A stretch of 64,000 nucleotides of DNA from positions 372,001 through 436,000 of the forward strand of contig NZ_JANJOU010000001.1 in NCBI RefSeq assembly GCF_024594815.1, read 5' to 3'. The stretch comes from Roseomonas populi. Its GTDB lineage: Bacteria > Pseudomonadota > Alphaproteobacteria > Acetobacterales > Acetobacteraceae. Positions 38,228 to 40,388 of this stretch are shown here, one piece after another. The stretch's first letter is position 1, and each line of letters opens with the position of its first letter. Both the position numbers and the translations under genes were made by a program. Below the pieces are notes generated by a model. That model ran no database searches. It was not told the DNA's origin and saw nothing but the letters and a program-made list of their open reading frames with translations.

Positions 38228-39631
38228 ATGGCGCGTCCCATGATTGGCCGCGTGGTGCGGCGGCTGCGGAAGGAGAAGGGGCTGACGCAGGCCTCGCTCG
38301 CGCTGCGCCTGGGCATCTCCGCGAGCTACATGAACCTGATCGAGGCGGATCAACGGACGATCACCGCGAGCCTCGTCTTCAAGCTGGCGGATGCGTTGGG
38401 CGTCGATCTCGCCGTGCTCTCGGGCCAGGCCGAAGGGCGGCTGGAGGCAGGGCTGCAGGAGGTGTTCCGCGACCCGCTGCTGGGCGCGGAATCCGTGCCG
38501 GAGGAACAGGTGGCGGCGCTGGCCGCGGCGCCCGATGCGGCGCGCGCCGTGCTGGCGCTTTGGCGCGCCTGGCGAGTGGCGCGCGAGGATTCGGCGGGGC
38601 TCGCCCTTCCCTCCGGCCGCCGAATCCTGCTGCCAACCGAGGAGGCGCGCGACGCTTTCCACGATGCCGCCAACCACTTCCCGCTGCTGGAGGAGACGGC
38701 GGAGGCACTGCGCGCGACGATGGAGGAGCCCTCTCCGCAAGGGCTGGACCACGCGTTGGCGCAGCGGCTGCGCGCGCATCACGGGCTGTCCGTCACGGTC
38801 GGCGTGCTGCCGGGCGCGGCGCTGCGCCGCTACGACGCCGCGGCGGCGCAGCTGTTGCTGAGCGAGTCCCTGCCGCGCGAGAGCCGCAGCTTCCACCTCG
38901 CTTTCACCCTCGGGCTGCTGGAGGCGCGGGACGCGGTGGATCGGGTGATCGCGGCGATCGGCCCGTCATCCGAGGAGGCGGGATCGCTGCTGCGGATCGG
39001 GCTGCTGAACTACGTGGCGGCGGCCGTGATGATGCCCTACGCACCCTTCCAGTCAGCCGCGCGGGCGCTGCGGCACGACGTGGCGGCGCTGTCGGCCCGC
39101 TTCGCCGTTTCCTTCGAGCAGGCCTGCCACCGGCTCTCCACCTTGCAGCGGGAGGGGGCGCGGGGCCTGCCCTTCTTCTTCCTGCGCGTGGACCCGGCGG
39201 GCAATGTTTCCAAGCGCTTCTCGGCGGCGGGCTTTCCCTTCGCGCGCGGCGGCGGGTCATGCCCGCGCTGGATCCCGCACGCCGCCTTCGCCACGCCGGG
39301 GCGCGTGGTGGTGCAGGTGGCGGAGCTGCCGGACGGCGCCGCCTTCCTCTGCTTCGCGCGCACGGTGGAGCACGCGGCGGTGCGCTGGGGGGAACCGGCG
39401 CCGGTGCATGTGGTGGCGATGGGCTGCGAGCTCGGGCGGGCTGAGGAGGTCTGCTACGCGGACGGGATTGACCTGGACTCGGCGCGGGTCGGGATCGGGC
39501 TCTCCTGCCGGCTCTGCGACCGGGTGGATTGCCGCTCCCGCGCCTTTCCGCCGCTGGAGCACCGGCTGCTGCTGGACCCTGCCTCCGCCGGCGCCCCTTA
39601 CCGGTTCAGCCCGGCCCCTTCAGCCCGGTGA
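38228..39631 (+). CDS. XRE-family ScfR/RamB-like regulator of short-chain acyl metabolism
   Basis: 467 residues. An N-terminal helix-turn-helix ([20 protein letters not shown]) is followed by a long effector region with an IrrE/ImmA-like central part. A C-terminal cysteine cluster domain ends in [20 protein letters not shown]. Such proteins sense short-chain acyl-CoAs and control the glyoxylate bypass. Location opposite aceA, across 130 bases, supports that role. Its 3' end overlaps the guanidinium exporter gene by 12 bases. Confidence 0.9.
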
Positions 39632-39940
39632 AGCCAGCTTCAGCCCCACCAGCCCGGCCAGGATGAGGGCGGCGCTGGCGATCCGAAGCGGCGTCGCAGC
39701 CTCCCCCAGCACGGCGATGCCGAGGACGAAAGCGCCGAGCGCCCCGATTCCCGTCCAGATGGCATAGGCGGTGCCGAGGGGCAGGCTCCGCATGGCGAGC
39801 GCGAGGAGGCCGACGCTCGCGGCCATGCCGGCGAGGGTGATGACGCTCCAGAGGGGGCGCGTGAAGCCGTGGGATGCCTTCATCCCATAGGCCCAGAGAA
39901 CTTCGAGAAGACCGGCGAGGATCAGGTACAGCCAAGCCAT
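39620..39940 (-). CDS. gdx: SMR-family guanidinium exporter (Gdx/SugE type)
   Basis: 106 residues, four membrane helices. It works as an antiparallel dimer exchanging protons for guanidinium. The conserved glutamate is in LAGLLEVLWAYGMK (Glu13). The Gdx-type signature GTAYAIWTGIGALG is present. The guanidine-II riboswitch 22 bases upstream of its ATG independently identifies the substrate. AGGGG precedes the start. It overlaps the regulator gene at its 3' end. Confidence 0.93.
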   Translation of the reverse strand: MAWLYLILAGLLEVLWAYGMKASHGFTRPLWSVITLAGMAASVGLLALAMRSLPLGTAYAIWTGIGALGAFVLGIAVLGEAATPLRIASAALILAGLVGLKLASPG

Positions 39941-39961
39941 GGCGAGGCCCCTTCCGATGGG

Positions 39962-40012
39962 GCCGGGCCGTCCCGGCGTTGGTCAGATAGCGCCGCAGGT
40001 CGTCCCGCGGCG
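39962..40012 (-). promoter_or_regulatory. guanidine-II (mini-ykkC) riboswitch
   Basis: On the minus strand two hairpins carry the diagnostic ACGR loops. Hairpin 1 (40012-39991) has a 9-bp stem CGCCGCGGG/CCTGCGGCG with one G-U and loop ACGA (40003-40000). Hairpin 2 (39977-39962) has a 6-bp stem GCCGGG/CCCGGC and loop ACGG (39971-39968). A 12-base linker separates them, and the ribosome site of gdx follows within 15 bases. This layout is the mini-ykkC motif, in which guanidinium stabilises the loops and exposes translation. Confidence 0.88.
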
Positions 40013-40043
40013 GCTCCGGCGCATCAGCCCGCGCCGGATGGTG

Positions 40044-40283
40044 TCAGTCGCAGTCGCAGCCCGGAGTGGGGCCGGGATCGACGCGGACGATGTGGTGGTC
40101 GATCCACTCCGCGACAAGGCGGCGCGCCTCGGCCACCGAAGCCTCGGGGTGGTGGATGCGATACAGCGAGGTGCAGGCACCGAAGGCGCTGTAATCGTTC
40201 GTGCCGACGTCGCGCAGCTCACGATAGGCCGTGACGACGGCCCGCTCGCAGTTGCGGGCGATGTAGCTGTAGTCGTGCCCCAT
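40044..40283 (-). CDS. 79-residue protein of unknown function upstream of the guanidine riboswitch
   Basis: MGHDYSYIARNCERAVVTAY, then AYRELRDVGTNDYSAFGACT, and a C-terminal PGPTPGCDCD. Mostly helical; four cysteines, two at the very end. The start is set at ATG 40283; a ribosome site is weak. A strong sigma-70 promoter lies 60 bases upstream (40346-40374), and the riboswitch and exporter gene lie just downstream on the same strand. A role linked to guanidine is possible but unproven. Confidence 0.6.
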   Translation of the reverse strand: MGHDYSYIARNCERAVVTAYRELRDVGTNDYSAFGACTSLYRIHHPEASVAEARRLVAEWIDHHIVRVDPGPTPGCDCD

Positions 40284-40345
40284 CCGATCCGATCCCGTTC
40301 CCCGTGTTGCGATGTTGTTGAGAATAACTCGCAACACCTGGTCGT

Positions 40346-40374
40346 GTTATACCGATAGCTGAACAAGCGTTCAA
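40346..40374 (-). promoter_or_regulatory. sigma-70-type promoter of the small gene/riboswitch unit
   Basis: Minus strand: TTGAAC (40374-40369), 17-base spacer, TATAAC (40351-40346). A palindrome CTGAACA-N10-TGTTCAG (40359-40382) overlaps the -35 box and may be an operator. This is among the closest consensus matches in the window. Confidence 0.65.
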
Positions 40375-40388
40375 GTGTTCAGTGGTAA

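What the first reader, a model, noticed from the sequence alone, without database searches (positions are those of the whole stretch)
39620..40382. Guanidine-II riboswitch controlling a Gdx exporter, with an uncharacterised upstream gene
Two minus-strand hairpins with ACGA and ACGG loops, spaced 12 bases, stand just ahead of an SMR exporter with the Gdx signature GTAYAIWTGIGALG. ACGR loops in paired stems are the hallmark of mini-ykkC. Stem 1 is unusually long (9 bp). A consensus promoter and a 79-residue protein ending CDCD lie just upstream on the same strand, so that gene may belong to guanidine physiology; no such protein is known to me in that setting.
Basis: partly seen in the sequence, partly recalled or inferred. 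Interest (0 to 1): 0.75.

Follow-up and report, generated by a model that had tools for sequence, protein, structure and literature searches.

The report
Guanidine-II riboswitch before gdx exporter
This is an ordinary guanidine-II riboswitch in front of a likely guanidinium exporter; the small gene before it is a widely conserved gene of this bacterial family with a predicted iron-response (Fur-type) site and no consistent link to guanidine.

Summary
Rfam's guanidine-II model matches 40011-39963 (minus) at 46.2 bits (cut-off 32); the next gene passes NCBIfam's SugE/Gdx model and resembles solved SMR protein 6wk5. Eight genus genomes, own included, have both ACGR hairpins, with compensatory changes in stem 1. 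New member of a known kind.

The suggested guanidine role of the 79-residue gene is not supported. It is in 55 of 60 same-family genomes but beside gdx in only 11, all one genus, and in 8 of 80 named loci. Three of the 11 pairs lack the riboswitch.

The gene has a Fur-type box upstream in 46 of 55 family genomes and 69 of 80 named loci (reversed-motif control 1 of 80). The motif was written from this gene family, so that is partly circular; but in the own genome it also precedes bfd, bfr-like, TonB receptor/FecCD, Rrf2-suf and nuoA genes. The gene probably belongs to the iron response; its biochemistry is unknown. Inferred: gdx shares its transcript and guanidine gates translation.

The parts
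39620..39940 (-). gdx: SMR-family guanidinium exporter (by family model), 106 aa
   Evidence: NCBIfam NF008512 134.2 bits over cut-off 126; Pfam PF00893; PDB 6wk5 E 6.5e-29
39963..40011 (-). Guanidine-II (mini-ykkC) aptamer, hairpins P1 and P2
   Evidence: Rfam RF01068 46.2 bits, cut-off 32; only match found in the genome; P1 covariation in 8 genus genomes
39991..40012 (-). P1 stem-loop, 9 pairs, ACGA loop at 40003-40000
   Evidence: sequence
39962..39977 (-). P2 stem-loop, 6 pairs, ACGG loop at 39971-39968
   Evidence: sequence
39946..39964 (-). Candidate Shine-Dalgarno sequestering hairpin GGCCCC (39964-39959) / GGGGCC (39951-39946); its 5' arm shares three bases with the 6-pair P2
   Evidence: overlap with P2 in 7 of 8 genus genomes; in the unconstrained minimum-energy fold of 6 of 8; release on P2 formation not shown
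40015..40038 (-). GC-rich hairpin between the 79-aa stop codon and the riboswitch, no T run here
   Evidence: terminator scan found none
40044..40283 (-). 79-residue protein gene of a family-wide, uncharacterised Cys/His protein
   Evidence: 55 of 60 family genomes; no Pfam or NCBIfam family; three-helix model, best mean pLDDT 85
40318..40334 (-). Predicted Fur-type iron box TTGCGAGTTATTCTCAA
40346..40374 (-). Predicted promoter of the 79-residue gene: TTGAAC (40374-40369), 17 bases, TATAAC (40351-40346)
   Evidence: sequence; recurs in genus genomes

Best explanation
A standard guanidine-II riboswitch sits between a 79-residue gene and gdx. Shown by sequence: the two ACGR hairpins, the Gdx-type gene, and a hairpin GGCCCC/GGGGCC over the ribosome-binding region of gdx that shares bases with P2, so the two cannot both form fully. 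Inferred: guanidinium stabilises the P1-P2 kissing pair, P2 wins over the sequestering hairpin, and gdx is translated. The upstream 79-residue gene is a core gene of this bacterial family with a Fur-type box just after its -10 element; inferred: it is repressed by iron-loaded Fur and made when iron is short. Its position before gdx is particular to one branch of the genus and most likely only lends gdx its promoter; it is not a guanidine gene. Its biochemical role (perhaps metal or Fe-S handling, from conserved Cys and His) is a guess.
For: Rfam match well over cut-off. Gdx model and solved relative. P1 pairs 4, 5, 7 and 8 change on both sides across 8 genus genomes. The sequestering hairpin overlaps the P2 3' arm in 7 of 8 of these, and in 10 of 15 leaders of a second gdx type with other letters, such as GGCAGC/GCUGCC and GGCCCU/AGGGCC. 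79-aa gene: 55 of 60 family genomes, against 11 of the same 60 with a guanidine-II match, 10 over the cut-off; beside gdx in 11 of 55 and 8 of 80 named loci. Box upstream in 46 of 55 and 69 of 80 (control 1 of 80). Of 13 other places of the motif in the own genome, 6 lie ahead of bfd, a bfr-like ferritin, TonB receptor/FecCD, Rrf2-SufB, an ExbB/TolQ-type gene and nuoA. The genome has two FUR-family genes, 116.7 and 49.4 bits. In Gluconacetobacter diazotrophicus predicted Fur boxes at tonB-exbB and nuoA-N are in print (PMC9368920, passages).
Against: Folding calculations do not show a clean release of the ribosome-binding site when the aptamer hairpins are forced: own leader 0.33 free to 0.30; it rises in 3 of 8 (one of these with only P1 forced) and does not in 5. 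The box motif was written from members of this gene family, so its match there is partly circular; of the 13 other places, 6 show no iron link. 9 of 55 family genomes and 11 of 80 named loci lack a box at 3 mismatches. One search used stricter filters that lose weak riboswitch matches. Co-transcription of the two genes is not shown, and a hairpin lies between them. No ligand or iron experiment was possible.
Confidence: 0.8

Rival explanations
1. The 79-residue protein works in guanidine physiology and forms a functional operon with gdx.
For: Adjacent and co-directional in 11 of 15 genus genomes, with a gap of only 22 bases in G007.
Against: No adjacent gdx in 44 of 55 family genomes, and no gdx signature within about 660 bases downstream in 72 of 80 named loci (three of these, L176, L178 and L182, hold less downstream DNA than that). 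G036 has the riboswitch but no 79-aa match; in G034 and G041 the two are on different contigs.
Confidence: 0.07
2. The inverted repeat upstream of the 79-residue gene is an RNA hairpin in its 5' leader, or an operator for another FUR-family protein, not a Fur box.
For: It lies downstream of the -10, so it is probably transcribed; in many named loci it starts only about 30 bases before the start codon. The genome has a second FUR-family protein (49.4 bits), and which of the two is Fur was not tested.
Against: The same motif stands upstream of bfd, bfr-like, TonB receptor/FecCD, suf and nuoA genes in the same genome, the reach expected of Fur; in Caulobacter bfd and nuo genes answer to Fur (PMC3751524, passages).
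Confidence: 0.15
3. The riboswitch is decaying in this genus and gdx is in effect constitutive.
For: 3 of 11 linked pairs lack both ACGR hairpins (G007, G001, G010); G009 has a mismatch in P2 and scores 30.9 bits, under the cut-off.
Against: 8 of 11 keep both loops, with compensatory stem changes; the window copy scores 46.2 bits.
Confidence: 0.05

Closest known systems
Guanidine-II riboswitch (mini-ykkC, Rfam RF01068)
   Same: Two G+C-rich hairpins with ACGR loops, short linker, ahead of an SMR exporter; candidate ribosome-binding-site control
   Different: Nothing essential; here it lies between two genes
Gdx guanidinium exporters (SugE type of the SMR family; PDB 6wk5; the name Gdx for that entry is recalled)
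   Same: Same length, full-length match, GTAYAIWTGIGALG signature
   Different: GMKAS where many relatives have GLKYT
Fur regulon of Acetobacteraceae (Gluconacetobacter diazotrophicus, PMC9368920)
   Same: Motif ahead of TonB-related and nuo genes, as reported there; bfd is Fur-controlled in Caulobacter (PMC3751524)
   Different: The 79-residue family was not seen in the passages read; the supplementary gene tables could not be consulted

Membership tests
Guanidine-II riboswitch (RF01068) | Covariance-model score over the gathering cut-off | tested here: met
   46.2 bits against 32
Guanidine-II riboswitch (RF01068) | Two stem-loops, both with ACGR tetraloops | tested here: met
   ACGA and ACGG
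Guanidine-II riboswitch (RF01068) | Stems conserved through compensatory change | tested here: met
   P1 pairs 4, 5, 7, 8 vary on both sides among 8 genus genomes; P2 is almost invariant and says nothing
Guanidine-II riboswitch (RF01068) | Ligand frees the ribosome-binding site | tested here: inconclusive
   P2 and the sequestering hairpin overlap, but folding ensembles show no clean release
Guanidine-II riboswitch (RF01068) | Binds guanidinium | not testable with these tools
   needs in-line probing or calorimetry
Gdx guanidinium exporter | NCBIfam SugE model over its curated cut-off | tested here: met
   134.2 against 126
Gdx guanidinium exporter | Transports guanidinium | not testable with these tools
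   needs a transport assay
Fur regulon (79-residue gene as a member) | Box at the promoter, shared with iron genes of the same genome | tested here: met
   motif derived partly from the gene family itself
Fur regulon (79-residue gene as a member) | FUR-family regulator present in the genome | tested here: met
   PF01475: 116.7 and 49.4 bits, cut-off 23.1
Fur regulon (79-residue gene as a member) | Expression answers to iron and Fur | not testable with these tools
   needs RNA measurement
Guanidine-associated gene (79-residue family) | Stands beside gdx or guanidine riboswitches across genomes | tested here: not met
   beside gdx in 11 of 55 family genomes and 8 of 80 named loci

The most novel reading that the evidence does not exclude
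The 79-residue family is an undescribed, nearly universal Cys/His three-helix protein of the Acetobacteraceae iron response, and in one Roseomonas/Pararoseomonas branch gdx has been captured on its Fur-controlled transcript, so that the exporter is made only when iron is short (transcription) and guanidine is present (translation).
Probability: 0.3. Interest if true: 0.5.

Novelty: new member of a known kind. Interest (0 to 1): 0.33.

Why it matters
The riboswitch adds one more example to a known class. The more useful result is a correction: the small upstream gene should not be studied as a guanidine gene but as a candidate for an uncharacterised iron-response protein found in almost every sampled member of its family. 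If so, it is a cheap target for an iron-limitation experiment in acetic acid bacteria.

Tried and rejected

Papers: PMC12186494, PMC9368920, PMC3751524 and PMC5486947 were seen as passages only; other titles only as search listings. I did not meet the 79-residue family in print; the searches bearing on this are 27, 28, 51, 75 and 76, in the held open-access library, and they were about Fur and iron, as the family has no name to search by. A 2006 paper on iron regulation in alphaproteobacteria, sought by its DOI from recall, is not held.

Full report
What is there. On the minus strand the window holds, in order, a gene of the tartrate/isopropylmalate dehydrogenase type (41493-40423), a predicted promoter, a 79-residue gene (40283-40044), a guanidine-II aptamer (40011-39963) and gdx (39940-39620). 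Rfam's guanidine-II model scores 46.2 bits against a cut-off of 32, and this is the only match found in the genome. The exporter passes the curated SugE model (134.2 against 126) and aligns over nearly its full length to the solved SMR protein 6wk5 (E 6.5e-29).

Is the riboswitch real and maintained? Among 100 genomes searched (own included), 14 have a guanidine-II match and 12 pass the cut-off; the 14 control genomes ring in 2 (with stricter filters that lose weak matches). Within the genus, 11 of 15 genomes have the 79-residue gene directly followed by gdx (coordinates). Of these 11, 8 keep both ACGR hairpins, own included. Across those 8, P1 pairs 4, 5, 7 and 8 change on both sides, while P2 hardly varies and so says nothing; G009 has a mismatch in P2. 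Three lack the pair of hairpins: G007 (a 22-base gap) and G001 and G010 (a different hairpin-rich leader). In the other four genus genomes the nearest SMR gene lies elsewhere; in one of them, G013, it has two ACGR hairpins with a long linker.

How it probably works. A hairpin GGCCCC (39964-39959)/GGGGCC (39951-39946) covers the purine run before the gdx start. Its 5' arm shares bases with the 3' arm of P2, so the two compete. A script found the same arrangement in 7 of 8 genus genomes and, with other letters (such as GGCAGC/GCUGCC and GGCCCU/AGGGCC), in 10 of 15 leaders of a second gdx type. The hairpin is in the unconstrained minimum-energy fold of 6 of 8 leaders. This fits the published view of guanidine-II as a translational switch that promotes initiation (PMC12186494, passages). 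But the energy models do not show a clean release: forcing the aptamer hairpins raised the free fraction of the site in 3 of 8 leaders, one of them with only P1 forced, and not in 5. So the direction of the switch rests on overlap, conservation and precedent.

The 79-residue gene. The protein matches no Pfam or NCBIfam family. It is present once in 55 of 60 same-family genomes, and in 4 of 40 others of the class only as distant relatives. A scan of named genomes found 396 relatives and kept the best 80 loci. By their titles these are mostly Roseomonas and related genera, Roseococcus, Acetobacter and unclassified Acetobacteraceae or Rhodospirillales, many of them metagenome bins, one labelled Terriglobia; that the genera belong to the Acetobacteraceae is recalled. 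The commonest upstream neighbour in 60 loci is the dehydrogenase gene (33 upstream ORFs form that cluster), while downstream neighbours vary; gdx was clustered downstream only in genus genomes. In the named set a gdx signature lies within about 660 bases downstream in 8 of 80 loci (3 of the 80 hold less downstream DNA). So the link to gdx is local to one branch, and the proposed role in guanidine physiology is not supported.

Its iron signal. A 17-base element, TTGCGAGTTATTCTCAA (40334-40318), lies 11 bases beyond the best -10 match in 14 of 15 genus genomes and 10 bases beyond in one. Allowing 3 mismatches to TTGMRARTNATTYKCAA, it is found within 200 bases upstream in 46 of 55 family genomes and in none of the 5 distant relatives, and in 69 of 80 named loci, against 1 of 80 for the reversed motif. 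I wrote the motif from members of this gene family, so these counts show conservation rather than identity. The more independent test is the rest of the genome. With 2 mismatches the motif has 14 distinct places (12 forward and 9 reverse hits; reversed control 0 and 1). Of the 13 others, 6 precede bfd, a bfr-like ferritin, a TonB receptor facing a FecCD permease gene, an Rrf2 regulator with SufB, an ExbB/TolQ-type gene (second ORF along) and nuoA; a seventh precedes an iron-sulfur molybdopterin enzyme; for the other six I saw no iron link. The genome has two FUR-family genes. In Gluconacetobacter, predicted Fur boxes at tonB-exbB and nuoA-N are in print (PMC9368920, passages), and bfd and nuo genes answer to Fur in Caulobacter (PMC3751524, passages). 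I conclude that the gene is probably iron-regulated.

What the protein may be. Across 19 diverse sequences C12, A19, R42, H45, P46 and E47 are invariant; across 41 closer ones C12, C37, C76, C78 and H44, H45, H63, H64 are invariant too. The best of five models is a three-helix bundle with mean pLDDT 85, low at both ends; the others fall to 65. No fold relative stood out. Metal or iron-sulfur handling is a guess from these residues.

Verdict. The riboswitch-gdx pair is a new member of a known kind. The upstream gene is the more interesting part, for iron and not for guanidine. The operon reading (one Fur-controlled transcript, guanidine-controlled translation of gdx) is plausible but not shown; a GC-rich hairpin without a T run lies between the genes.

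Noticed in passing
L207-L214, L059, L063, L205, L206, L215, L216, L219 (upstream of gdx-like genes): A second gdx type (MKQS or a near form where others have LKYT) has a leader with an invariant CCGGGACGRCCCGG hairpin, but in place of the usual ACGR first hairpin a conserved GRCCACGYYC or GACGACGTTC element, with a pyrimidine after ACG. 15 leaders were collected; two genes of that type, G046 and G510, lack it. Rfam gave no guanidine-II match for the 5 tested at E <= 0.5 and 16 bits for one tested alone. Possibly a variant guanidine-II aptamer.
   Followed up: partly
L065, L066, L067, L068: gdx leaders with two ACGR hairpins but long linkers, not matched by the 48-position Rfam model at E <= 0.5.
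   Followed up: partly
L050, L052, L053: Genus relatives with the 79-residue gene next to gdx but no ACGR hairpin pair between them: a 22-base gap, or a different hairpin-rich leader.
   Followed up: partly
40374-40360, minus strand: The -35 TTGAAC is half of an inverted repeat TTGAAC-N4-GTTCA, exact in 6 of the 11 gdx-linked genus genomes and in G037 and G057 of other genera, imperfect in others; possibly a second operator.
   Followed up: no
L115-L119; Azospirillum replicons: Distant relatives of the 79-residue protein outside the family lack the C-terminal CxC but have CxC near the N terminus; no box was found upstream of the 5 examined (5 to 7 mismatches).
   Followed up: partly
39620-39631: The 3' ends of gdx (minus) and of the convergent ScfR/RamB-like regulator gene 38228-39631 (plus) overlap by 12 bases; that regulator lies head to head with an isocitrate lyase gene.
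   Followed up: no
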